From a virus, in the IMG/VR virus record IMGVR_UViG_3300028800_000292, positions 1-25,783 of that record: a stretch of 25,783 nucleotides of DNA. One strand, 5' to 3'. Positions within the stretch are counted from its first letter, which is position 1, and each line of letters opens with the position of its first letter. Made by a program: the position numbers and the translations under genes. Shown here in pieces: positions 3,474 to 25,416 of this stretch. The notes under the pieces were generated by a model, which was not told the origin of the DNA, made no database searches, and was given only the letters and a program-made list of their open reading frames with translations.

Positions 3474-4172
3474 TTAACTCAGGGATTTTTTCCAGACTCT
3501 ATTATAGGCAGGTTTATATACGCCTTTTTTTCTGAGAAGTTTTCTTACAGATGTGGCATTGCAATTATATTTCTTTGCTATTTCATGTGCACTGCTACCG
3601 CCGATATACATAGCCACGGCATCATCTTTGTCTATTTTTTGTTTATGGGGGTATTTCTTAGTATATCTTTGTTTTGTTATTTCGCCTATCTCAGCGGTTT
3701 CTATTTTATTCATATTATATTTCTTAATCATCTGAGAAACACACTGAACAGTGACTTTGAATTCTTTTGCAATTTCTGTCAGCGACTGGCCATCTTTATG
3801 TTTAAGAAAAACAAGCTCCGGGATAAGTTTTCTGAAACTTCTTATGGGAGGGCAATCTTTTAACCCATGAAGTGTATTTTCAGAATAAGTTATCCATTCA
3901 AGGTTCTTTATTCGGCTATCAGCCGGATTATGATTCTTGTGGTTAACAACATGTTTTTTACTTGGCCTTGGCCCTATAAATGTCTCAGCCATAAGCCAGT
4001 GGACTGCAACAGGTTTTTTTACTCCTCTTGCGTTAAGAGGGGCAAATGCATATCCATTGGCAAGATGTTGCTTAACCTCGATAGGGGCGCACCTTATTCT
4101 TCCGAGGTTGCTAATTTCATATCTGTCGCTCCAAGGCTCTACGGCTATTCTTTTCCATATTTCTTTTGGCAT
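3474..4172 (-). CDS. HNH homing endonuclease (NUMOD4-HNH) with C-terminal helix-turn-helix repeats
   Basis: This 232-aa protein is on the opposite strand to all its neighbours. Residues 4-28 (EIWKRIAVEPWSDRYEISNLGRIR) are a NUMOD4-type DNA-binding motif. Residues 57-95 form the HNH nuclease: H58, the VVNHKNHN segment with H78, and IKNLEWIT with N90. Two helix-turn-helix-like segments follow (SLTEIAKEF... near 129 and SAHEIAKKY... near 199), probably giving target recognition. GAGAG lies three bases before the ATG, a close spacing. The gene is visibly A+T-richer than the virion genes beside it, consistent with recent arrival. It fills the gap between two tail genes without disrupting either, as free-standing homing endonucleases do. 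Confidence 0.88.
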   Translation of the reverse strand: MPKEIWKRIAVEPWSDRYEISNLGRIRCAPIEVKQHLANGYAFAPLNARGVKKPVAVHWLMAETFIGPRPSKKHVVNHKNHNPADSRIKNLEWITYSENTLHGLKDCPPIRSFRKLIPELVFLKHKDGQSLTEIAKEFKVTVQCVSQMIKKYNMNKIETAEIGEITKQRYTKKYPHKQKIDKDDAVAMYIGGSSAHEIAKKYNCNATSVRKLLRKKGVYKPAYNRVWKKSLS

Positions 4173-15733: not shown

Positions 15734-15747
15734 CGGACGGAATGTTG

Positions 15748-15794
15748 TTGACAGTTAATAACGTCAATGATAATGACTTCCTTACAAAAGTCAA
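15748..15794. promoter_or_regulatory. Overlapping divergent promoter pair (copy A)
   Basis: Plus strand: TTGACA at 15748-15753, a 15-base spacer, GATAAT at 15769-15774. Minus strand: TTGACT (reverse of 15789-15794), a 16-base spacer, TATCAT (reverse of 15767-15772). The two -10 boxes overlap, so the promoters should be mutually exclusive. TTGAC/GTCAA half-sites lie at 15748, 15763 and 15790. The same layout occurs at 21571-21618. The plus promoter would serve the 51-aa gene and rusA; the minus one the 58-aa ORF. Confidence 0.45.
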
Positions 15795-15810
15795 TAATAA
15801 TTTAACGGGG
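15790..15810 (+). repeat. GTCAATAATAATTTAACGG leader element, copy A
   Basis: This stretch is nearly identical to 21614-21635; the copies differ by one T and by GGGG versus GGAG. In both places it ends in the ribosome site of a small gene and starts 15-16 bases after a -10 box, so it would lie in the 5' untranslated region. Confidence 0.6.
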
Positions 15811-15815
15811 AATTT

Positions 15816-15971
15816 ATGCTATTCACACCGGAAGACCTTGAAACACTTGAGCCTTTCTTCCAAAAAGCAATTGAGAAGAACTTATATAGAATGCAAAAGC
15901 AGATTGAGCTATTGCAGGCCGATATTAAGGCGCTCCGCTCCTTAGTCCATGCAGGCGTAATGGATGATTAA
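15816..15971 (+). CDS. Small helical protein upstream of rusA
   Basis: This 51-aa ORF starts at an ATG five bases after GGGG. The sequence, MLFTPEDLETLEPFF then IEKNLYRMQKQIELLQADI, suggests a short helix followed by an amphipathic coiled coil. The stop overlaps the next start by eight bases, a sign of translational coupling with the RusA-like resolvase. It carries the duplicated leader also found before the RHH gene at 21645. No family is recognised. A role in regulation or in assisting the resolvase is possible but not shown. Confidence 0.6.
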   Translation: MLFTPEDLETLEPFFQKAIEKNLYRMQKQIELLQADIKALRSLVHAGVMDD

Positions 15972-16299
15972 GATTATACTGCCGCTACCACCTAGCGTTA
16001 ATTGCCTGTACTCCGGTAAGGGCAGACGTCACAAGAGCAAGCGATATGAGCGGTGGGAGATAACCGCTCGCAATGCGCTGCGGTATCAGAAATTTACCCC
16101 CTTCGGTAAGGAGCCGCTAAGAGCGCATTACCGATTCGGCAGGCCAGACAAGCGCATACGGGACCTTGGCAATCTAATAAAGGCGGTTGATGATTTTATG
16201 GTGCATGAAGGTATCATTGCTGACGACAGCTGGATACATCACATAACCATTGAGTGGGCTGACGTGACAGGAGCCCATATAGAAATCAGCCTCCTGTAA
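15964..16299 (+). CDS. rusA: RusA-like Holliday junction resolvase with an altered active site
   Basis: This 111-aa protein matches the RusA family in length and pattern: LPPSVNCLYSGKGRRHKSK at the start, the RDLGNLIKAVDDF active-site helix, and GIIADDSW near residue 87. RusA resolves four-way DNA junctions as a dimer using acidic residues and a lysine. Aligned to E. coli RusA with a constant offset of three, D70 corresponds to D67, K76 to K73 and D91 to D88, but D72 corresponds to G69. Loss of that acid could reduce or alter catalysis, or D76/D77 may compensate. It is coupled to the 51-aa gene and faces the minus-strand recombination operon. Confidence 0.85.
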   Translation: MIKIILPLPPSVNCLYSGKGRRHKSKRYERWEITARNALRYQKFTPFGKEPLRAHYRFGRPDKRIRDLGNLIKAVDDFMVHEGIIADDSWIHHITIEWADVTGAHIEISLL

Positions 16300-16469: not shown

Positions 16470-16679
16470 TCAGAATGGAGGACTCTTTGGGTCAAAGGAA
16501 AACTCCTTGCAGCCTATGGGTAAAATTTCTGCCGGTATAGCCATTTTACACTGTTTGCAGATTCCGGGGAACTCCCAATTTATGCAGGCCGTGCAGGGTG
16601 TGGTGGTTAACATCTTGTTAACCTCCTCCCATGCATTCTCCAGCGCCTTGAGCAGCGAGTGCTTCTCGTGGGGAGTCAT
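16470..16679 (-). CDS. Small cysteine-rich phage protein
   Basis: This 69-aa protein overlaps the helicase stop by four bases (ATGA). The first 25 residues are a helix (HEKHSLLKALENAWEEVNKML). Cysteines at 29, 32, 41, 44 and 57 follow, then a short end closing in DPKSPPF. I recall small phage proteins with this helix, cysteines and terminal Pro-Phe layout encoded with replication/recombination genes; none has an assigned activity to my knowledge. Metal binding is likely. It is the penultimate gene of the leftward operon. Confidence 0.65.
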   Translation of the reverse strand: MTPHEKHSLLKALENAWEEVNKMLTTTPCTACINWEFPGICKQCKMAIPAEILPIGCKEFSFDPKSPPF

Positions 16680-18286
16680 TCCATATGCTCCCGCACCACG
16701 TTAAAGTATTTCCCCACCCGCTGTACATCCACCGATTTTGGCTTCCGCAACTCAGAGGAGCGTGCCAGGGCATCGGTAATGGTATTGGGAGGCTGGGTAT
16801 CGGCATGGCCGCGCCACCACGCGCAGGCTTCATTCCTGAGCTTACCGGAAGCCTCAAACAGCACCCATTTGCGGAATGACTTGGATAGGCCGCACATATA
16901 CTCAATGCGCAGGGAGTCCGGTCGCCCTTCCTTGGTATGGCGATAGTAGAAGACGTTTGTAACTTCGTGAGTCTCAATCTGGAGCTGGGTAGAGAGGACG
17001 GCGGCAGAGGATGCGGTTTTATCTATGTCCAGCTCATGCGGCGGGAACTGGAAGCCACATGCCGGACACTCCATGACTGCAGCGTGACATTCCTCCTTGC
17101 AGGCTGGGCAGATTTTAATCGGCGCTTCGCCCTTGCCCTTTTTCTTCTCTTTGATATGCACCTGGTCGATGGGGCCAAGGGCTTCCACCACCCGGCCGAA
17201 GTCCAGAAGCAAGCAGTCAGATTTATTTGGCGCTAACCGCATACCGCGCCCCGCAGTTTGTATATACAACACAGGGCTACGCGTCGGCCTCATGAATGCC
17301 ATGAGGTCAATCTGAGGTGCGTTAAATCCGGTAGTCAGAACCATGACGTTGACCACACATTGCACGTCACCACTCTTGAACCGCGACAGAATAGAATTGC
17401 GCTCTTCAGTGGGTGTTTCACCCGTCACCATTTCACAGTTAATATTGTACTTTCTGATTTCATCGCGCACATGCAGACAGTGCGTAATTCCCGCCGTAAA
17501 TACCAACCACTTGTTTCTTGCCTGCCCGAACTCAATAATCTCCTTCACGCAAGCGCGGGTTAGCATATCAACATCAACTGCCCGCTCAAGCTCCCCGGCA
17601 ATATAATCCCCACCACGCATCTTGACACCATGCACGTCCATGCGAGTCTGAACCTGCGGCGTAATGATTGGTACTAAATAGCCGCGATTGATGAGGTCGA
17701 TGATACCAATCTCATAGCATATATGAGTAAAGAGTCGCCTTTCACCCTTATGCAGATAGCCGCTATTGGCGCGAAATGGGGTTGCCGTAAATCCGATTAC
17801 CTTGAGATATGGATTAATAATCTTTAATTCCTCAATGAAGCGACGATACATGGTGTCATCTTCGGGGCTCAAGAGGTGACTTTCATCTATAACAAGTAAA
17901 TCCGGCACATGTGGATAACTCAGCGCACGCTTATACATACTCTGTATGGTTCCCATCACCACATCACCAGACAGGTCCTTCTTGCCGAGCTTATCGCTGC
18001 AAAAGCTGATGCGTAGATGCGGACAGTGCTCGGCTAATTCCTGCGCATTCTGAATGATAAGCTCGGAGACATGAGACACAAGCGTTACCCGCGTGCCTGG
18101 ATATAGGCTATAGGCGCGTTTTATAAAGTCAGCAATGATCAGGCTTTTACCGCCAGCGGTAGGGATGACCACCAGCGGATTGCCCTTCTTTTTATCAAAG
18201 TAGGCAAAGATGGAGTCCACCGCCTCCACTTGATAGTCGCGCAATGTCTTCTGTGCTGGTGTTGGAATAAAGAGGTCTGGCATCAT
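16676..18286 (-). CDS. Superfamily 2 DNA helicase (DEAD/DEAH-like) with zinc-finger-like segment
   Basis: This 536-aa protein has the SF2 motifs in order: Q19 in LRDYQVEAV, Walker A PTAGGKS (42-48), Walker B DESH (134-137), motif III FTATP (166-170), motif V region TTGFNAP and motif VI QTAGRGMR (about 343-350). Behind the two RecA-like domains is a CPAC...CPAC pair (about 384-402) and an aromatic-rich C-terminal region of unknown fold. It should unwind or remodel DNA in replication or recombination. It overlaps the nuclease gene upstream and the Cys-rich gene downstream by four bases each. Pairing with a Cas4-like nuclease suggests combined end processing. Confidence 0.9.
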   Translation of the reverse strand: MMPDLFIPTPAQKTLRDYQVEAVDSIFAYFDKKKGNPLVVIPTAGGKSLIIADFIKRAYSLYPGTRVTLVSHVSELIIQNAQELAEHCPHLRISFCSDKLGKKDLSGDVVMGTIQSMYKRALSYPHVPDLLVIDESHLLSPEDDTMYRRFIEELKIINPYLKVIGFTATPFRANSGYLHKGERRLFTHICYEIGIIDLINRGYLVPIITPQVQTRMDVHGVKMRGGDYIAGELERAVDVDMLTRACVKEIIEFGQARNKWLVFTAGITHCLHVRDEIRKYNINCEMVTGETPTEERNSILSRFKSGDVQCVVNVMVLTTGFNAPQIDLMAFMRPTRSPVLYIQTAGRGMRLAPNKSDCLLLDFGRVVEALGPIDQVHIKEKKKGKGEAPIKICPACKEECHAAVMECPACGFQFPPHELDIDKTASSAAVLSTQLQIETHEVTNVFYYRHTKEGRPDSLRIEYMCGLSKSFRKWVLFEASGKLRNEACAWWRGHADTQPPNTITDALARSSELRKPKSVDVQRVGKYFNVVREHME

Positions 18287-19245
18287 TTCACCTCACTATC
18301 CGTCCAGATAGCCCCAGACTTGAGGCGATAAGTGATGGACTTATCTGTAGCCTCAATCACTTCACCGGGCACAAACCCGGGCAATAGCAAATGAGCAGGG
18401 CATGCGGCAAGCTGCTCATCAAGAGTCAATTTCTTTCCCCACCTGGCGCAATGCCATTCCCCGCTTGCTATGGGTGAGCTGTGAACGCAGCTTCGGCAGG
18501 TTCTGTCCGGCATATCGCCCTTATGGCACACCCCTGCAAACGAACAATACCGGCATTCAAAGTAGGAGGCGTCATTGCTCAGTCGGTCAAGCGGCTCTTG
18601 GGATTGGATAATACGTTTCGCCTTGGCAATCTCATGTATAGCATGGGCCGCATCATAATCTGTACGCACACCAATCCAATCGCGTCCGCCTGGAGTTGCT
18701 ACAACAAGATAATGACGTGTACGATTGTGATAGTGGCAATAAGTCTGCGCTTGAGAATAATAAACGGGGTTCCACTTCTTTAGTGCCTGCTTTTCACCCA
18801 ACTCCACCACGGCCTTTTTAAGCTCGTTAAACTTCTTTTCTGAGCAGCATTTGACTTCAAGCACATGGGGCGTTTTTGGGGCTTGCAATATACCAAGTAT
18901 ATCCCCATCAAGATGTCCGCTAAAATGGCCATCATGGTCTTTATATCCTATTTGGTTGCCATCTTGCAGCTCGCTTATAAGTGTAATACCATCTACTGCA
19001 CGCAACCTATCAATAACAAGTTGCTCCGTCCTGTGACCATCTTCAAACCTTTTAAGCGTAGCCGCATCAAACGCCTCGTGGGCTGCGAACCGGAATCTGT
19101 ACCACGTCTTACGTGCGCAGCTTTCACCGACAGATGACATCCCCAAATATGCCCTCGGCTTCTCCTGCGCTGCCTTGGCTACAAGGGCCGCATCGGCGGC
19201 AGCCAATGTAGGGTCTTCTTCAAGGATGCTGGATAGGGAGCTCAC
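18283..19245 (-). CDS. Cas4-like/RecB-family PD-(D/E)XK nuclease with iron-sulfur cysteines
   Basis: This 320-aa protein starts at a GTG overlapping the previous stop (GTGA). The nuclease core is D113 in GHLDGD, E130 and K132 in LEVKC, and Q165/Y169 (QxxxY), with H71 and E74 further upstream. Cysteines 43, 231, 234 and 240 are spaced as in Cas4/AddB proteins that hold a 4Fe-4S cluster. A second four-cysteine set (250, 253, 266, 282) follows, probably a zinc site. Such enzymes degrade single-stranded DNA ends. No Cas1 or CRISPR is nearby, so the role is phage recombination rather than adaptation. The order ATPase, SSB-like, nuclease, helicase fits an end-processing and annealing pathway. Confidence 0.87.
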   Translation of the reverse strand: MSSLSSILEEDPTLAAADAALVAKAAQEKPRAYLGMSSVGESCARKTWYRFRFAAHEAFDAATLKRFEDGHRTEQLVIDRLRAVDGITLISELQDGNQIGYKDHDGHFSGHLDGDILGILQAPKTPHVLEVKCCSEKKFNELKKAVVELGEKQALKKWNPVYYSQAQTYCHYHNRTRHYLVVATPGGRDWIGVRTDYDAAHAIHEIAKAKRIIQSQEPLDRLSNDASYFECRYCSFAGVCHKGDMPDRTCRSCVHSSPIASGEWHCARWGKKLTLDEQLAACPAHLLLPGFVPGEVIEATDKSITYRLKSGAIWTDSEVK

Positions 19246-19628
19246 GCATTCCCCTCTTTCAGCACCAGCTTATCCCCAGCCTTCACCATTGCTAAAGACA
19301 TACTCAGCGCGTCAATCAGGCTCTGCGATGCCTTGGCGTCAAACTGCGTGGTAAACTTCACCGTCTGATTTCCAAACACCACCTCATTCTGCAAGAGCAC
19401 GTTCTTGTTCTCCCTATCCGTGCCGGTCGTGTAATGCAGTATATACATGCCCTTGAGATTGGTGTTCATGGAATGGAGCTCCTGCAGCAGGTATTCAAGC
19501 TGCGTTAACGCCTCACTCACATCCTCGTCTGACACCATGCGTAGCAAGTCCTTCATGGCATCAGACGGGCTGTGTTGAGCCTCACACGCAACGGCGTACA
19601 GGGCCTTTATGGTTGAGTGGATACTCAC
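19242..19628 (-). CDS. Hypothetical protein in the recombination operon
   Basis: This 128-aa protein starts at a GTG two bases after the SSB-like stop and ends overlapping the nuclease start by four bases. The first half is helical (IKALYAVACEAQ, then DEDVSEALTQLEYLLQELHS), and the second half is beta-rich and then helical (QTVKFTTQFDAKASQSLIDALSMSLAMV) ending in KAGDKLVLKEG. No cysteine cluster or nucleotide motif is visible, and no family is recognised. Tight coupling to both neighbours suggests it works with the SSB-like protein or nuclease. Confidence 0.7.
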   Translation of the reverse strand: MSIHSTIKALYAVACEAQHSPSDAMKDLLRMVSDEDVSEALTQLEYLLQELHSMNTNLKGMYILHYTTGTDRENKNVLLQNEVVFGNQTVKFTTQFDAKASQSLIDALSMSLAMVKAGDKLVLKEGNA

Positions 19629-19629
19629 C

Positions 19630-20193
19630 CTACTTCTTCCATCCCGGAGCTACCGGAGCAGCGGCTGGAGCAGCGGCGGCGGGAGTGCCGACATTATTCC
19701 AGTTTGGCTTTGCGGCGGCAGCAGCAGTCTGCGCCGGAGCAGCAGCGCCCTTCTTCTTAGCATCCTCTGCATCTGCGTCTACGCCGACGGGGTAGTATTT
19801 TCGGCACTCGTTTTTTGGTTCAGGATATTTAGGGTTATCGGAAGCCTTGACGATAAGCCGCCCCTGCACTGTTTTTCCCAAAAGTTCCTGATCATCATGA
19901 ATAATACCGTTAATACCGCAAGCCTTTGCCAAGTCAGCCAGACCTTCAATGCCAATCTGCCGAGCCTTCTGACTCTTGTTAACGATATTAAACCTGTCCC
20001 AGAACTTGCGATTGCTAAACTGAGGCGGCGCCTGGACGTCAAACTCAACTTCCTCGTAGACACCCTGCTTGTCGTTAGTGTCCTTTTGCTGTACGCGCAC
20101 GATAGTCATTACATATACACCGGGAGGCAGTGGATTATTGCCAGTCGGCGAAGTGCGTTCATATTGGGTGGTATCAATTCCTACGGTAGCCAT
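19630..20193 (-). CDS. DUF669-type single-stranded-DNA-binding-like protein
   Basis: This 187-aa protein starts at an ATG behind AAGGAG. The core matches the DUF669 family as I recall it: LPPGVYVMTIVRVQQK at the start of a beta barrel, EEVEFDV, NRKFWDRFNIVNKSQKARQIGIEGLADLAKACGI with the helix between barrel strands, and LLGKTVQGRLIVKA then KNECRKYYP. Such genes commonly sit beside Sak4-type annealing proteins and are thought to act as phage SSBs. Residues from about 145 are an Ala/Pro-rich disordered tail ending in PGWKK, not the acidic tail of bacterial SSB. The upstream Sak4-like gene supports the role. Confidence 0.78.
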   Translation of the reverse strand: MATVGIDTTQYERTSPTGNNPLPPGVYVMTIVRVQQKDTNDKQGVYEEVEFDVQAPPQFSNRKFWDRFNIVNKSQKARQIGIEGLADLAKACGINGIIHDDQELLGKTVQGRLIVKASDNPKYPEPKNECRKYYPVGVDADAEDAKKKGAAAPAQTAAAAAKPNWNNVGTPAAAAPAAAPVAPGWKK

Positions 20194-20204
20194 TTTTAGT
20201 CTCC

Positions 20205-21092
20205 TTACTTAGCGTTGTTGAAAAATTTAGGCAGGGTAATCTTCTGAGCGGATTGCTGCATTCCGACTTCCTTCTGCGTAGGCTGCTGGAATTGCTTGAA
20301 CCACGGGATATGGGAAGATAGTACACTCCATACATCACCCCAGTTCTTATCTTTAACTTCAATCTGCGGTGGCAAGCTGTAGCGGTTTTTAGCGCTCCAT
20401 GCTGGGCGTGCTTCAGTATATACAATGCGCTCTCCTGAGCCAACTGCGCGGTTACGCGATGCACCAAACCCAAGCTTCTCTCCGGTAAGTGCTGTACGCC
20501 AGTTAGCAAACAGAACAATGTCGCTATGTTCAACAATCTTATCCTTTGCCGATGTCTTTTCCGCATCCTGAAGTTTTGGCATGTAACAGTCAAAGCTGTC
20601 CATATCGGGCGGTGTTACCTTGCGAATGGCGGAGTGAATGATATAGATAATCATCATATCTTTTTCAAAGCGAAGGCGGTCGGAAAAGGCAATAAAGTCA
20701 TTCCAGTAGTCTATGGCCAGCTTATACCCCTTTCCGTAGCCATAATCCTCGACATTCTTAACCGGCATTCCCTTTTCATTGGTGGGCTGCTGACGCATAA
20801 GATAATTCCACACCATTGGCTCGTACCAATCGAGTGTATCGAATACGGCGGTTTTATAATTATGATTTCCATCCAATAAGGCTTGAATACTCATCATCAC
20901 ATCTTCATAGGTCTTGCACAGAGGAAACTTAGCCACATCCAGATTACCAAGGCTATTCTCCGTTGGAATAAAAATAGGCGAAGGGGCGTTGGCCGCAAAC
21001 GTACTTTTTCCTAGCCCCTCGTCCGAGTGGATAGTAATTACCGGTGGATTTTTTGTGATGCCGGTTTGAATTGATTCGAGTGAAATGGCCAT
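20205..21092 (-). CDS. RecA-fold AAA_24 ATPase, Sak4-like single-strand annealing protein
   Basis: This 295-aa protein starts at an ATG behind GGAAG. The Walker A region is SDEGLGKS (23-30), Walker B is AVFDTLD with D85, and the segment between (FIPTENSLGNLDVAKFP) is typical of phage AAA_24/Sak4 proteins. These promote strand annealing and recombination with an SSB partner. The first glycine of the usual GxxxxGKS loop is serine here (S23). The GYGKGYKLAIDYW helix and IIYIIHS strand complete the core, and the last 60 residues look less structured. It is followed by the DUF669 gene, a common pairing. Assignment as Sak4-like rests on pattern recall; a plain ATPase of the same fold is the alternative. 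Confidence 0.82.
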   Translation of the reverse strand: MAISLESIQTGITKNPPVITIHSDEGLGKSTFAANAPSPIFIPTENSLGNLDVAKFPLCKTYEDVMMSIQALLDGNHNYKTAVFDTLDWYEPMVWNYLMRQQPTNEKGMPVKNVEDYGYGKGYKLAIDYWNDFIAFSDRLRFEKDMMIIYIIHSAIRKVTPPDMDSFDCYMPKLQDAEKTSAKDKIVEHSDIVLFANWRTALTGEKLGFGASRNRAVGSGERIVYTEARPAWSAKNRYSLPPQIEVKDKNWGDVWSVLSSHIPWFKQFQQPTQKEVGMQQSAQKITLPKFFNNAK

Positions 21093-21094
21093 AA

Positions 21095-21535
21095 CTATTC
21101 TTCCTTATCTATGATTTTAATGGATGGGTTTTTTGCCTTTACGGTTCTGGCGGGACTAAAGAATGCCTTAATGTTGTCACCCCATGATTTATATAAGGTT
21201 TCGCTGACACCGTACTCAATCTTGATATAATCTTTTGGGTTTGCCCCATCAGCGGCAATCTGTTTCCAGATAGCGTCTAATTGTGCCTGGTCCCACTGCA
21301 CATCCTTGGATGTATCTATCTTGGCTATCTTATTGCCAAGCTGGAGATTGACAATGCCGAACGCCTCTGGCTTTGCACCATACAAGGCTTTAATCTCGGC
21401 TGCCTTGCGATTGAGAAGCTCATTATTCAACTTCTTCTTTGCAAGCTTTACTGCAGTCTCGTCTTCTTCTACAGCTAACAGGTGTTCGGCAAGCTCGGTA
21501 TCATTAAGTGTGGTTAGGTCGGGTATCGTTTGCAT
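21095..21535 (-). CDS. Hypothetical protein, first gene of the leftward recombination operon
   Basis: This 146-aa protein starts at an ATG seven bases after AAAGGAG and about 48 bases after a strong predicted promoter start. The first 50 residues form a charged helix (TELAEHLLAVEEDETAVKLAKKKLNNELLNRKAAEI). The middle has FGIVNLQLGNKIAKIDTSKDVQWDQAQLDAIWKQIA, and the end is basic. No family is recognised with certainty. Leading position before the Sak4-like ATPase suggests a recombination accessory. It ends two bases before the ATPase start. Confidence 0.75.
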   Translation of the reverse strand: MQTIPDLTTLNDTELAEHLLAVEEDETAVKLAKKKLNNELLNRKAAEIKALYGAKPEAFGIVNLQLGNKIAKIDTSKDVQWDQAQLDAIWKQIAADGANPKDYIKIEYGVSETLYKSWGDNIKAFFSPARTVKAKNPSIKIIDKEE

Positions 21536-21570
21536 CGCTTGACTCCTTTGGTTCGGTTTGAAAAAAGTTA

Positions 21571-21597
21571 TTGACTAATTTGTTTGCAGACTATAAT
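21571..21597 (+). promoter_or_regulatory. Rightward promoter for the RHH/primase operon
   Basis: TTGACT at 21571-21576, a 15-base spacer and a perfect TATAAT at 21592-21597. The spacer is shorter than the usual 17, a hint that an activator may be needed. Transcription would start near 21604, about 40 bases before the RHH start. It overlaps the leftward promoter. Confidence 0.6.
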
Positions 21598-21618
21598 GTA
21601 GGTGTTATTGAATGTCAA
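21590..21618 (-). promoter_or_regulatory. Leftward promoter for the recombination operon
   Basis: Reading the minus strand: TTGACA (21618-21613), a 17-base spacer, TATAGT (21595-21590). This is close to consensus with ideal spacing. The -10 boxes of the two opposing promoters share bases 21592-21595, so RNA polymerase can occupy only one at a time. Confidence 0.7.
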
Positions 21619-21635
21619 TAATAATTTTAACGGAG
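21614..21635 (+). repeat. GTCAATAATAATTTTAACGG leader element, copy B
   Basis: Near-identical to 15790-15810. Here GTCAATAA also overlaps the leftward -35 box and forms an inverted repeat with TTATTGAC at 21568-21575, with 38 bases between the arms. It looks like an operator arm and ends in the GGAG ribosome site of the RHH gene. Confidence 0.6.
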
Positions 21636-21644
21636 AAAATAAGT

Positions 21645-21791
21645 ATGCGCCAGGTCGTTTCAAAATGCTACTGTCTTCCGCCTGATATTGTAAAATGGCT
21701 AGATGCTGTAGCTAAGAAGAAGAGGCGCTCTACCAGTAGTATATTGACTGAAATACTTCTCGAAATTAAGCAGACTAAAACCTCCAAATAA
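21645..21791 (+). CDS. Ribbon-helix-helix (CopG/Arc-like) DNA-binding protein
   Basis: This 48-aa protein has its ATG nine bases after GGAG. The pattern is RHH: a short strand (VVSKCYCL, residues 4-11), helix A (PPDIVKWLDAVAKK), a basic turn with KKRRSTSS, and helix B (SILTEILLEIKQ). Such proteins bind as dimers to inverted DNA repeats. It is the first gene after the overlapping divergent promoters and is followed 30 bases later by the primase gene, so autoregulation and control of the leftward promoter are plausible. The inverted TTGAC/GTCAA sites around 21571 and 15748 are candidate operators; this is inference from position. Confidence 0.7.
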   Translation: MRQVVSKCYCLPPDIVKWLDAVAKKKRRSTSSILTEILLEIKQTKTSK

Positions 21792-21821: not shown

Positions 21822-24077
21822 ATGGCGGATGCGTTGGCAGCATGGCTATCTACAACTATCGGCCAATATGCTGCTGCATATGCTAAAACAAGCTATGTTC
21901 TCCCCCTGCATGGCATTACAGCGGATTTAAAGTGCACCTGCGGTGCTTCTGACTGCAAAAGCGCTGGCAAGCATCCATTCACCAAGCACGGCCTTAAAGA
22001 TGCTTCTAATAATATAGAGCAGATAGCTGCTCTTTTTAATTACAGAGAAGATTTAAATATTGGCTTGCTCACAGGTGAGAAGTCCGGATTCTTTGTCGTG
22101 GATGTTGACGGCAACAAAGGCGGATTTGAATCTCTTGAAAATTTATTTCAGGCATACGGAGAGTTTGACCCAACTGTCATTATAAAAACAGGAAACGGCG
22201 TGCATATCTGGTTCGCCTATCCCCAGGGGATACATATAGGGAACCGCACTAATCTTCTGCCTGGAATTGACGTGAGGGGTGAAGGCGGTTACGTGGTGGC
22301 CGCTCCGAGCCGCCATGCGTCTGGTGTTTATTATGAGCCAACAGAGACAAGCGCCAGAAATACTATTGTGGCCCCTGCATGGCTTACTGCGATGGTGCAG
22401 ACAAAAAAAGAAAAGATTGAACCGGTAGACAGAAATAGCACGAGCGGTGCTAAGTCAGAATGGAGCGCCGAGGAAATACAGGGCATGCTTGATTGCATAA
22501 ACCCATCCCTCGGCTACTCGGACTGGATTGCGGTCGGCATGGGAATTCACTCAGGCGGCTATCCATACAAGCTTTGGGATGACTGGAGCAGTCGCGGTTC
22601 AAATTATGAAAGAAACTGCTGCGCTCCTCACTGGCGTAGTTTTAAAACAGATGGCGGCATATCTCTAGGCACGCTCGTGCAGATGGCCCAGCTCGCTGGC
22701 TGGAAGCCAACACCCAAAGAGCGCGAGATTGTCGATACATCGAATGTGCAATTGCTGATAAAAAAAGCGGAGAAGGCTTTGAAGCCTGCGGCAGTAAAGA
22801 AACCCCAGCCTATGGTGCTTGGCTTCAACGCGCTGGAACTCCCCGGCCTTATTGGCGATACAGTGCGCTGGATTACCAAGCATGCCATCTTCAAGCAGCC
22901 TGAGCTTGCCCTTATAAACACGCTCGCCTTTGCAGGCTCTGTCTTTGGCCGTCGGTACTCTTCCCCGCTCAATACGCGGACCAATCTGTATATGGTCGGC
23001 ATTGCGGGAACAGGTGACGGTAAGGACCACAGTAGAAAGGCAATTAAGGAGCTGGCCCATGCTTCCGGCCTTGATGACCGCATTGGCGCTGATGCCATTC
23101 GCTCAGATTCAGGTATGTTACGCGGCCTCATGAATAACTGCAGCCAGCTTATGATGATTGATGAATTTGGTCACTTCCTGCAGGCTATAGGTGACGATAA
23201 GTCTCCCCACTATATACGCTCGCAGATTGGTATTCTGCTGAAATTATACAGCACCTCAAATAGCATTTATAATCATGGGGAATATGCAGACTCCAAAACA
23301 AAATCGATAATTATCCAATATCCCAATCTCTGTATATACGGCACGTCCACGGAAGAAAAATATGCCAAGTCTCTCAAAAAATCAGCCATCGACAGCGGTG
23401 AGCTCAATCGCTTTATCACCATCAAATCCAGGCAGGGAAAGCAATATCCCGATAAGATAATGCCTGCCTATGAAATAGAGCAATCGCTTATAAACAGGTG
23501 GAGTGAGTTCTCCCCTAAAATCGGCAGTTCGCTTGGTGATATAGTTAACAGCTCTGATATGGCTCCAGACCCGATTACAATCCCGTGGGGTGACTGCGAT
23601 GAAATACAATATGCCATACAATGCAAGCAGGTCGATAAAACCAATACCGACTCCCCCATCCGATCCCTCTGGGGTCGCATGTTTGAGAACACAGTAAAGA
23701 TTGCTATGATTCTGGCAATAGCCCGGGACAAGAACAAACCTCAGTTCAAGCCAGAAGACTTTGATACCGCGCAGATGATTGTGGAGTCCTCTATCGAATA
23801 TCTTAGCTATCTCGCCGGAACACGCATGAGTGAAACACCGCAGGAGGATAGTAATAACGAAATAGTCAATGCCATCATAGAAGCGGGTGGGGAAATGGGG
23901 CGCAGGGACATCATGCGGAAATTCCGCAAGCTTAAAAAACGGGACCTTGATGAGGTGCTGGGCAGCCTTATTGAGCAGGAAATAATTGAGGCTGATAAAG
24001 CAGCTGATGAGGGCAAGGGGCGTCCGAAGACTGTATATAAGATAGTGAAAGACAATAACATTTCAGCCGTGGCTTAA
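21822..24077 (+). CDS. Primase-polymerase / replicative helicase-like fusion protein
   Basis: This 751-aa protein starts at an ATG seven bases after GGGGAG. Residues about 15-190 are a bifunctional primase-polymerase domain: cysteines 38, 40, 45 and H51 near the start, D94 and D96 in FFVVDVDG, H128 in GNGVHIWF, and D150 in GIDVRG. A PriCT_2-like helical region follows (about 218-292, IQGMLDCINPSLGYSDWIAVG...). Residues about 340-600 resemble a DUF3987-like ATPase, with the Walker-A-like loop GTGDGKD (396-402) and Walker B MMIDEFG with D447 and E448. The end (about 680-745) looks like a winged helix. It probably primes and unwinds phage DNA. Asp replaces the usual Ser/Thr after the loop lysine. 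Confidence 0.88.
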   Translation: MADALAAWLSTTIGQYAAAYAKTSYVLPLHGITADLKCTCGASDCKSAGKHPFTKHGLKDASNNIEQIAALFNYREDLNIGLLTGEKSGFFVVDVDGNKGGFESLENLFQAYGEFDPTVIIKTGNGVHIWFAYPQGIHIGNRTNLLPGIDVRGEGGYVVAAPSRHASGVYYEPTETSARNTIVAPAWLTAMVQTKKEKIEPVDRNSTSGAKSEWSAEEIQGMLDCINPSLGYSDWIAVGMGIHSGGYPYKLWDDWSSRGSNYERNCCAPHWRSFKTDGGISLGTLVQMAQLAGWKPTPKEREIVDTSNVQLLIKKAEKALKPAAVKKPQPMVLGFNALELPGLIGDTVRWITKHAIFKQPELALINTLAFAGSVFGRRYSSPLNTRTNLYMVGIAGTGDGKDHSRKAIKELAHASGLDDRIGADAIRSDSGMLRGLMNNCSQLMMIDEFGHFLQAIGDDKSPHYIRSQIGILLKLYSTSNSIYNHGEYADSKTKSIIIQYPNLCIYGTSTEEKYAKSLKKSAIDSGELNRFITIKSRQGKQYPDKIMPAYEIEQSLINRWSEFSPKIGSSLGDIVNSSDMAPDPITIPWGDCDEIQYAIQCKQVDKTNTDSPIRSLWGRMFENTVKIAMILAIARDKNKPQFKPEDFDTAQMIVESSIEYLSYLAGTRMSETPQEDSNNEIVNAIIEAGGEMGRRDIMRKFRKLKKRDLDEVLGSLIEQEIIEADKAADEGKGRPKTVYKIVKDNNISAVA

Positions 24078-24131: not shown

Positions 24132-24473
24132 ATGACGCTCCAATCCATCAACGTCTTCATTCTGAAATACCATCACATTGCTCGTGGCATTCTTATTATC
24201 GCCCTGGGCCTGCTTATTGGCCTGACTGCATACTATATCGAGCAGCATGTTATTCTCTTCGGCAGCTTAGGTTTCATGGCCTTCGCAATCTACGAGGGTG
24301 TAATTCACATGCTTTCTAACCCGATTAAGAGAGATATCGCTCTTGACCTGGCTAAGGCTGAAACATGGGCAAAGTCGGAATTAGGTTTTGACCCTACAGG
24401 GGTTATACAGCCAACAGGGGCGATACAGTCTTCGGATGCGGCACCCACCCCAGCCCCCGCAGCAAAGCCGTGA
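24132..24473 (+). CDS. Candidate holin (two membrane segments)
   Basis: This 113-aa protein has two predicted membrane helices, about residues 17-36 (ARGILIIALGLLIGLTAYYI) and 41-59 (ILFGSLGFMAFAIYEGVIH), then a soluble C-terminus with PTGVIQPTGAIQ and an Ala/Pro-rich end. It has 54 bases of leader and a GGAG ribosome site. The stop overlaps the endolysin start (GTGA), and spanin genes follow, which makes holin or antiholin the best reading. A small accessory membrane protein is the alternative. No family name is claimed. Confidence 0.65.
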   Translation: MTLQSINVFILKYHHIARGILIIALGLLIGLTAYYIEQHVILFGSLGFMAFAIYEGVIHMLSNPIKRDIALDLAKAETWAKSELGFDPTGVIQPTGAIQSSDAAPTPAPAAKP

Positions 24474-24988
24474 GATTCTGGCTCATAGCAGTAGCCCTGC
24501 TATTGGCATCCCCTGCCTACGCCTGCCTTCATGATTGCCAGCCCGATTACCGCGCATTTCGTCTTACAAGGCAATATGAGGGGTTAAGGCTCTTTGTGTA
24601 TGAAGATGTAGCGGGGCACGGAACGATTGGATTCGGGCACCTCATAAAGCCAGAAGAGTCATTCTCCAGCCCCATAACTGGCATTGAGGCGGAAGCCCTG
24701 CTAGAGCAGGACGAGGCTATTGCAGCTAAGGGTGTAAATTCCCTTGTGAACGTCGATTTGACCATCTCCCAAGCTAATGCACTTGACGATTTTGTTTTTA
24801 ATCTTGGTGCCGGTACTTTAGCGAGATCCTCAATACTTTCTGCGCTCAATGAATCCTGCTATATCCAGGTTACTTCTAAGTTTCTTGAATATGATAAGGC
24901 CCGCGTAGGTGGTGTGCTGCGGGTGTTTCAAGGGCTGCTTAGCCGTAGAAGGGCAGAAGTCTCGCTATATAGAGAGGATGTTCAATGA
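24470..24988 (+). CDS. Secreted endolysin, glycoside hydrolase family 24 lysozyme
   Basis: This 172-aa protein starts at a GTG overlapping the holin-candidate stop. It cleaves the glycan strands of peptidoglycan. The family 24 triad is clear: E37 in YEGLRLFVY, D46 and T52 in DVAGHGTIGFGH, with E-x8-D-x5-T spacing. Residues 1-18 (hydrophobic MRFWLIAVALLLASPAYA) look like a Sec signal with cleavage after Ala18, leaving mature Cys19 and Cys23 near the N-terminus. Secretion of this kind means the holin need not make large holes. Alternatively the segment is retained as a signal-anchor-release element. ALDDFVFNLGAG (about 104-115) is a second family motif. Confidence 0.9.
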   Translation: MRFWLIAVALLLASPAYACLHDCQPDYRAFRLTRQYEGLRLFVYEDVAGHGTIGFGHLIKPEESFSSPITGIEAEALLEQDEAIAAKGVNSLVNVDLTISQANALDDFVFNLGAGTLARSSILSALNESCYIQVTSKFLEYDKARVGGVLRVFQGLLSRRRAEVSLYREDVQ

Positions 24989-25416
24989 GCGGATATATAA
25001 TTCTTCTACTTATGGCTATATCACTACTCGGTGGCGCGGGTGGTACATGGTACGTGAAGGGCAATGCAGACAAGCTTGCCTTGGAAGCGGCAATAAACAC
25101 TCAGAAAGAGAACGATAATAAATTCTGCGCTAAAGAAAAACAAATCACCAAGGAGGCCAACGATGGACTACAGAAAGACCGCGATGCTATTACTGCCAAT
25201 CTTGCTAAGTATCAGCAGTTGCACCCCCCGCAGTGTATCATGCCCGCAATTACCAAGCCTGCCGCAAAGGGTAAACATAGGGCCAGACCCACAGCAGCTA
25301 ATGGAATCAGCACTGGCTGGCTACGTAGCTTTGCAGCCGACGACTGCGCCGTCTACCGTGCAGCGCTGATACGGGAGTACCGGTTTGAAGACGCCATATG
25401 GGCGTTGTTTAAATGA
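24985..25416 (+). CDS. Rz-like inner-membrane spanin
   Basis: This 143-aa protein overlaps the endolysin stop by four bases. Residues 4-20 are an N-terminal membrane helix (YIILLLMAISLLGGAGG), followed by a charged periplasmic coiled coil (about 28-75) with C48, and a basic Pro-rich end. This is the i-spanin layout: anchored inside, spanning the periplasm, and pairing with a lipoprotein to fuse the membranes at lysis. The nested lipoprotein ORF at 25163 in another frame is strong support. The last three bases before its stop belong to the start of another lipoprotein gene. Confidence 0.82.
   Translation: MSGYIILLLMAISLLGGAGGTWYVKGNADKLALEAAINTQKENDNKFCAKEKQITKEANDGLQKDRDAITANLAKYQQLHPPQCIMPAITKPAAKGKHRARPTAANGISTGWLRSFAADDCAVYRAALIREYRFEDAIWALFK
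25150..25156 (+). promoter_or_regulatory. Strong ribosome binding site inside Rz for nested Rz1
   Basis: AAGGAGG lies six bases before the ATG at 25163, inside the Rz coding frame. It is near-perfect and decides the Rz1 start. Confidence 0.75.
25163..25369 (+). CDS. Rz1-like outer-membrane spanin lipoprotein, nested within Rz
   Basis: This 68-aa ORF lies wholly inside the Rz gene in the +1 frame. It has a lipoprotein signal (KTAMLLLPILLSISSC) with the lipobox ISSC and lipidation on C20. The mature part is short and Pro-rich (PRSVSCPQLPSLPQ), as in Rz1 proteins, with C27 available for disulfide-linked dimers. It would sit in the inner leaflet of the outer membrane and bind the Rz coiled coil. 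Fully nested Rz1 genes are an established arrangement (lambda). Confidence 0.85.
   Translation: MDYRKTAMLLLPILLSISSCTPRSVSCPQLPSLPQRVNIGPDPQQLMESALAGYVALQPTTAPSTVQR

What the first reader, a model, noticed from the sequence alone, without database searches (positions are those of the whole stretch)
21568..21635. Overlapping divergent promoters with an inverted TTGAC/GTCAA repeat next to an RHH gene
The leftward promoter (TTGACA-17-TATAGT) and rightward promoter (TTGACT-15-TATAAT) share -10 bases, so only one can fire at a time. TTATTGAC and GTCAATAA arms flank the core, overlapping the rightward and leftward -35 boxes. The first rightward gene encodes an RHH protein, a class that binds inverted repeats. 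This has the shape of a switch between recombination genes (left) and replication/lysis genes (right).
Basis: partly seen in the sequence, partly recalled or inferred. Interest (0 to 1): 0.62.

Follow-up and report, generated by a model that had tools for sequence, protein, structure and literature searches.

The report
Phage two-way promoters sharing repressor sites
An uncultured phage carries two compact two-way promoters marked with the same short palindrome, probably the binding site of a tiny phage repressor encoded beside one of them, so that one protein can shut several early gene sets together; this is a solid but not exotic variant of known phage gene control.

Summary
Two consensus-like promoters (left TTGACA-17-TATAGT, right TTGACT-15-TATAAT) share -10 bases 21592-21595, and the element is conserved in two independent relatives (53 of 65 nt identical in all three; fourfold-degenerate sites 13-15%). 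The 48-aa gene beside it is very probably ribbon-helix-helix (RHH). The quoted TTGAC/GTCAA repeat is partly trivial, because it is the two -35 boxes facing each other. The better operator candidate is a 19-bp pseudo-palindrome, GTTATTGAATGTCAATAAT (21604-21622), covering the leftward -35/spacer and the rightward start. The same palindrome, inverted, lies in a second overlapping-divergent promoter at 15744-15798 (a 58-aa gene leftward; a 51-aa gene and RusA rightward). Relatives keep both sites at fixed 48- and 47-bp geometry, and one 66-kb relative has two more copies at promoters. A leave-one-out motif finds both sites in each genome where both are held, well above shuffles. Best reading: the RHH protein is an autorepressor that occludes both directions at each site, shutting down several early modules together, rather than a switch choosing recombination or replication/lysis. 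Binding and start sites are untested. This is a new member of a known kind (bidirectional promoter plus small RHH repressor, works like P22 Arc).

The parts
21571..21597 (+). Site A rightward promoter: -35 TTGACT 21571-21576, 15-nt spacer, -10 TATAAT 21592-21597; predicted start about 21604
   Evidence: conserved in L002 (CATAAT) and L006 (TATAAT)
21590..21618 (-). Site A leftward promoter: -35 TTGACA 21618-21613, 17-nt spacer, -10 TATAGT 21595-21590; predicted start about 21583
   Evidence: conserved in L002 and L006
21604..21622 (+). Candidate operator A, GTTATTGAATGTCAATAAT (TTATTGA-ATG-TCAATAA palindrome); covers leftward -35/spacer and rightward +1 to +19
   Evidence: I10; leave-one-out motif score 24.2 against shuffle maximum 16.5
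21567..21575 (+).
   Evidence: invariant in three genomes
21645..21791 (+). 48-aa ribbon-helix-helix protein gene, proposed regulator; SD GGAG 21632-21635
   Evidence: (PHROG Arc-like E 0.0013, CopG-like 0.0026)
21822..24077 (+). Primase-polymerase/helicase, next gene of the rightward operon
   Evidence: Prim-Pol, PriCT_2
24132..25416 (+). Downstream rightward genes: small membrane-like protein (holin candidate, no family match), lysozyme, Rz-like spanin (weak match)
21095..21535 (-). First gene of the leftward operon (phrog_2480; DUF7173-like, below Pfam cut-off)
16676..21092 (-). Rest of the leftward operon: Sak4-like AAA, DUF669/SSB-like, unknown 128 aa, Cas4-like exonuclease, DEAD helicase
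   Evidence: conserved order in L002/L003 and L006
15744..15762 (-). Candidate operator B, GTTATTAACTGTCAACAAC; inverted relative of operator A
   Evidence: (score 20.1, second in the window)
15748..15774 (+). Site B rightward promoter TTGACA-15-GATAAT (17-nt register in L006: TATAAA)
15767..15794 (-). Site B leftward promoter TTGACT-16-TATCAT
   Evidence: conserved spacing in L002, L005, L006
15557..15733 (-). 58-aa gene leftward of site B, conserved, function unknown
15816..16299 (+). 51-aa gene and RusA-like resolvase rightward of site B

Best explanation
Sites A (21567-21622) and B (15744-15798) are bidirectional sigma70-type promoters whose -10 boxes overlap (shown by sequence and conservation). 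Each carries one copy of a 19-bp pseudo-palindrome, consensus GTTATKRANTGTCAATAAT, laid over the -35 and spacer of one promoter and the start region of the opposite one (shown). The 48-aa RHH protein encoded first in the operon to the right of site A binds this palindrome, probably as two dimers about one helical turn apart (inferred). Bound protein blocks both directions at each site, so it limits its own synthesis and shuts off the replication/recombination operons and the small RusA operon together once enough protein has built up early in infection (inferred).
For: Two such sites in the window, against 0.013 expected for TTGAC-N37/38-GTCAA and 0.04 expected for overlapping promoter pairs. 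A leave-one-out motif recovers both as top hits in the window, L002 and L006 (24.2/20.1, 26.2/22.8, 24.3/23.9; shuffle maxima about 16-17), and the single available site in L005 (17.95 against 16.98). Geometry is fixed at 48 bp (A) and 47 bp (B) in all genomes. One relative (66 kb) has two further exact copies at its other end, each with TTGACA as a -35 and a -10-like box 16-17 nt on. The RHH gene is present next to A in all three genomes where A is held. RHH identity: PHROG Arc-like/CopG-like hits in family members, AlphaFold helices 13-26 and 30-47 after a short N-terminal arm, Foldseek matches dominated by Arc and CopG. Half-sites TTGAC and ATAAC are 10 bp centre to centre. RHH proteins commonly bind inverted repeats over their own promoters and occlude them (PMC5569661), and the autorepressor AcrR represses both RNAs at a bidirectional promoter (PMC12825309).
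Against: No binding or transcription data. RHH E-values are marginal (best 0.0013; Pfam none; Foldseek E above 0.2). The palindrome is imperfect in relatives (L002 TTATGTA...TCAATAA). Part of the motif is the -35 consensus itself. The rightward -10 at site B is weak in L002 and L005. L006's genome has another possible RHH gene next to its third site, which could be the true regulator. Only three to four independent lineages were found.
Confidence: 0.6

Rival explanations
1. Genetic switch: the RHH protein blocks one promoter and so favours the other, choosing between recombination genes and replication/lysis genes.
For: Promoter bodies overlap, so only one polymerase can sit there at a time; an outer half-site on the rightward -35 differs from the full palindrome on the leftward -35, which allows unequal effects. 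A plasmid conjugation switch (pLS20) works through overlapping divergent promoters and an autoregulator (PMC4207663).
Against: The operator covers the rightward predicted start as well as the leftward -35. Both operons hold DNA-replication genes (SSB/annealing left, primase right). Site B repeats the design before RusA and a 58-aa gene. No integrase was found in any of five related contigs, though several are fragments.
Confidence: 0.17
2. Same operators, but another regulator reads them: a second phage DNA-binding protein or a host factor.
For: L006's genome has a 202-203-aa protein with an RHH-like N-terminus just upstream of its third site. The window is a fragment, so other regulators may lie outside it.
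Against: The 48-aa RHH gene is fixed beside site A in every genome where A is held, and its predicted strand is nearly invariant. The larger protein is not in the window, and Pfam does not classify it.
Confidence: 0.18
3. No dedicated operator: the shared words are only phage promoter consensus (-35 with flanking AT and a favoured spacer sequence).
For: Two facing -35 boxes alone give TTGAC/GTCAA, and all copies of the motif coincide with a -35.
Against: 34 of 45 positions outside the hexamers are invariant at site A, against 13-15% at neutral sites. ATAAC is kept 5 nt downstream of TTGAC at all nine site instances listed, a place sigma70 does not read by consensus. The motif separates from the rest of each genome.
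Confidence: 0.1

Closest known systems
Bidirectional promoters with shared -10 elements (Warman, Wade, Grainger and colleagues; PMC10268837, PMC12825309)
   Same: Divergent predicted starts 21 bp apart at both sites, inside their 7-25 bp definition; -10 elements shared between strands; at PacrA/acrR an autorepressor (AcrR) blocks both RNAs.
   Different: Phage setting, near-consensus -35 boxes on both sides, spacing 21 rather than the usual 18 bp, RHH instead of TetR-type regulator, and the same unit used twice in one genome. Starts are predicted, not mapped.
P22 immI Arc/Mnt with Pant and Pmnt
   Same: Small phage RHH proteins acting as autogenous repressors (Arc autoregulation: Youderian 1982, as cited in PMC2629481); the divergent promoter layout is from general knowledge, not retrieved here.
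   Different: No antirepressor, mnt or sar found here. The operator is unrelated in sequence. The targets are replication/recombination operons.
Archaeal virus RHH regulators SvtR, AvtR, F55 (PMC5569661)
   Same: Small viral RHH proteins that repress their own promoter and several further promoters through imperfect inverted or tandem repeats.
   Different: Archaeal promoters; no overlapping divergent pairs of this geometry described there.
Aca autorepressors of anti-CRISPR operons (PMC9410906)
   Same: Small DNA-binding protein in the operon it controls, with an inverted repeat inside the core promoter.
   Different: Aca proteins are helix-turn-helix, with no anti-CRISPR link here.
Cluster A mycobacteriophage repressor and stoperators (PMC6550527)
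   Same: One phage repressor, several sites across the genome, at least one inside an early promoter.
   Different: Asymmetric 13-bp sites, 20-30 per genome, a lysogeny repressor; here two to four symmetric sites at promoters and no sign of lysogeny.

Membership tests
Ribbon-helix-helix (Arc/CopG/MetJ superfamily) regulator | Short N-terminal strand followed by two helices | tested here: met
   AlphaFold: helices 13-26 and 30-47, pLDDT above 90 in the middle; strand not formed in the monomer model, as expected for a strand that pairs in the dimer
Ribbon-helix-helix (Arc/CopG/MetJ superfamily) regulator | Recognisable profile or fold similarity | tested here: met
   PHROG Arc-like E 0.0013 and CopG-like 0.0026; Foldseek top matches include Arc and CopG, probability 0.8-0.96 but E above 0.2; no Pfam match
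Ribbon-helix-helix (Arc/CopG/MetJ superfamily) regulator | Dimerisation and sequence-specific DNA binding | not testable with these tools
   needs a bench assay
Bidirectional promoter (shared -10) | -10 elements overlap on opposite strands, starts 7-25 bp apart | tested here: met
   shared bases 21592-21595; predicted starts 21583 and 21604; site B predicted 15760 and 15781
Bidirectional promoter (shared -10) | Transcription in both directions observed | not testable with these tools
   no RNA data
P22 immI (arc/mnt/ant) module | RHH repressor gene plus antirepressor gene and a second repressor | tested here: not met
   no antirepressor or mnt-like gene among the genes searched beside site A; only the RHH gene is comparable
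Lysis-lysogeny switch | Integrase or prophage maintenance gene | tested here: inconclusive
   no PF00589 in five related contigs, but most are fragments
Regulon with a shared operator | Same motif at more than one promoter, conserved in relatives | tested here: met

The most novel reading that the evidence does not exclude
A fixed-geometry bidirectional promoter unit (TTGAC-N37/38-GTCAA with an embedded RHH operator) is reused within one phage genome, so that a 48-aa protein sets several early modules at once and limits polymerase competition and noise at each pair. This would be a natural regulon built from bidirectional promoters.
Probability: 0.3. Interest if true: 0.6.

Novelty: new member of a known kind. 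Interest (0 to 1): 0.42.

Why it matters
A 2026 study (PMC12825309) states that nothing was known about the control of bidirectional promoters. This phage group offers a minimal natural case in which one very small repressor appears to govern at least two of them, with the operator built into the core promoter. It gives a clean, testable set of four promoters and one 48-residue protein, and a motif for finding early regulons in related uncultured phages.

Tried and rejected
Single-protein scans with primase and RHH found no relatives in IMG/VR, and megablast of the right part of the window found none in named phages. A strict A-site pattern in genome contigs gave 34 hits, none with the neighbouring genes. 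A strict B-site pattern gave 20 hits; only those already tied to relatives were syntenic, and L072/L085:1386 is coding, so chance. L005:1251-1298 (48 bp) is inside a coding frame and taken as chance. L011, a distant relative, lacks both sites; its small ORF at the same place looked RHH-like by eye, but hhalign and a single-sequence fold did not support that, so it is not used as evidence. A DnaA-box reading (TTATTGACA against TTATNCACA) was considered from memory and dropped because the mismatch G is conserved. The perfect 7+3+7 palindrome of the window was checked in relatives and is only partly kept there. PDB sequence search gave no RHH match.

Full report
Observation. In Markov shuffles of the window, overlapping-divergent promoter pairs with both members at 10 of 12 or better occur 0.04 times; the window has two, this one (site A) and one at 15748-15794 (site B).

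Relatives. The window is a whole 25.8-kb IMG/VR contig with no close relative among the phage records searched. Scanning IMG/VR with the Cas4-like protein found L002/L003 (two contigs with identical sequence at the stretch compared), L006 (66-kb contig), L004 and L005 (both cut off before site A), and later the distant L011. Gene order around site A is the same in L002/L003 and L006. Site A is kept without indel across its 54-bp core; 53 of 65 positions are identical in all three genomes, 34 of 45 outside the hexamers, while fourfold-degenerate sites of primase, helicase and Cas4 are identical in only 13-15%. So the intergenic DNA is under strong selection beyond the promoter boxes.

Second site and motif. 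A scan for TTATTGAC with one mismatch showed a second cluster at 15745-15797, which is the intergenic space between a leftward 58-aa gene and a rightward 51-aa gene plus RusA. TTGAC-N37/38-GTCAA occurs twice in the window, at exactly these two places (0.013 expected), and recurs at the matching places in relatives with total lengths 48 (A) and 47 (B). L005 shows one further 48-bp match inside a coding frame, taken as chance. Read on the strand of the TTGACA promoter, both sites start TTGAC-N5-ATAAC; this is a 19-bp pseudo-palindrome GTTATKRANTGTCAATAAT on the other strand. A weight matrix trained without the genome tested ranks both sites first in the window, L002 and L006, above 20 shuffles of each; in L005 its single site scores 17.95 against a shuffle maximum of 16.98. 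In the 66-kb relative, two more exact copies lie at 62197 and 65426, each with TTGACA as the -35 and a -10-like box 16-17 nt away.

Regulator. The gene at 21645-21791 encodes 48 residues with a Shine-Dalgarno sequence at 21632. PHROG profiles give Arc-like E 0.0013 and CopG-like 0.0026. The AlphaFold model has two confident helices in the RHH arrangement, and Arc and CopG dominate the Foldseek list, although E-values are weak for so small a protein. It is found beside site A in each of the three genomes in which A is held and in neither of the two contigs lacking A (L005 is cut off before it; L011 has a different intergenic region). RHH identity is therefore likely, not proven; binding is inferred.

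Mechanism. At A the palindrome spans the leftward -35 and spacer and lies at +1 to +19 of the predicted rightward start. At B, in mirror orientation, it spans the rightward -35 and spacer and about -2 to +17 of the predicted leftward start. A protein bound there should stop polymerase in both directions. With the regulator as the first gene to the right of A, this predicts negative feedback and joint decline of the leftward operon (annealing protein, SSB-like, Cas4-like, helicase), the rightward operon (primase, lysis) and the RusA operon. A true either/or switch is less likely: both operons serve DNA replication, and basal transcription at five tested E. coli bidirectional promoters was too low for competition (PMC12825309). 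A difference in affinity between the full palindrome and the outer half-site at 21567-21575 could still give unequal repression.

Relation to known systems. The promoter layout fits the bidirectional promoters of Warman and colleagues (starts 7-25 bp apart; PMC10268837). Repression of both RNAs by an autorepressor is known at PacrA/acrR (PMC12825309). Small viral RHH proteins that control their own and other promoters are known in archaeal viruses (PMC5569661), and autogenous repression by phage P22 Arc is established (cited in PMC2629481); the Pant/Pmnt comparison is from general knowledge. The present case combines these in a phage and repeats the unit, so I rate it a new member of a known kind.

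Limits. Three to four lineages only; no RNA or binding data; the window and most relatives are fragments; host unknown.

Noticed in passing
window 15790-15811 and 21614-21635: The right flanks of sites B and A are nearly identical in the window only (GTCAATAATAA-TTTAACGG against GTCAATAATAATTTTAACGG), suggesting a copied leader or recombination between the two sites.
   Followed up: partly
L084 3198 and 6427 (G004:62197 and 65426): Two more copies of the operator at promoter-like sequences in the 66-kb relative; the gene just upstream of the first has an RHH-like N-terminus by eye (no confident family match).
   Followed up: partly
L026-L055 (genome contigs, mostly Clostridia): Many unrelated AT-rich genomes hold TTATTGACATATG...TATAATG...CATATGTCAATAA, a promoter framed by a strict inverted repeat of 55-59 bp, likely operators of some bacterial regulator.
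   Followed up: no
window 3474-4172: HNH homing-type endonuclease gene on the minus strand inside the tail/structural gene block.
   Followed up: no
window 21204-21231: A second strong promoter-like match (CTGACA-16-TATAAT, TG before -10) lies inside the first leftward gene, pointing right.
   Followed up: no
L011 5447-5540: The distant relative has a different intergenic element with an 11-bp inverted repeat TTTGGTATTTT/AAAATACCAAA framing it, next to a small ORF at the position of the RHH gene.
   Followed up: partly
L084 6780-7106: Repetitive ORF (GDYSTSGSS/GDYSKSASS units) at the end of the 66-kb relative.
   Followed up: no
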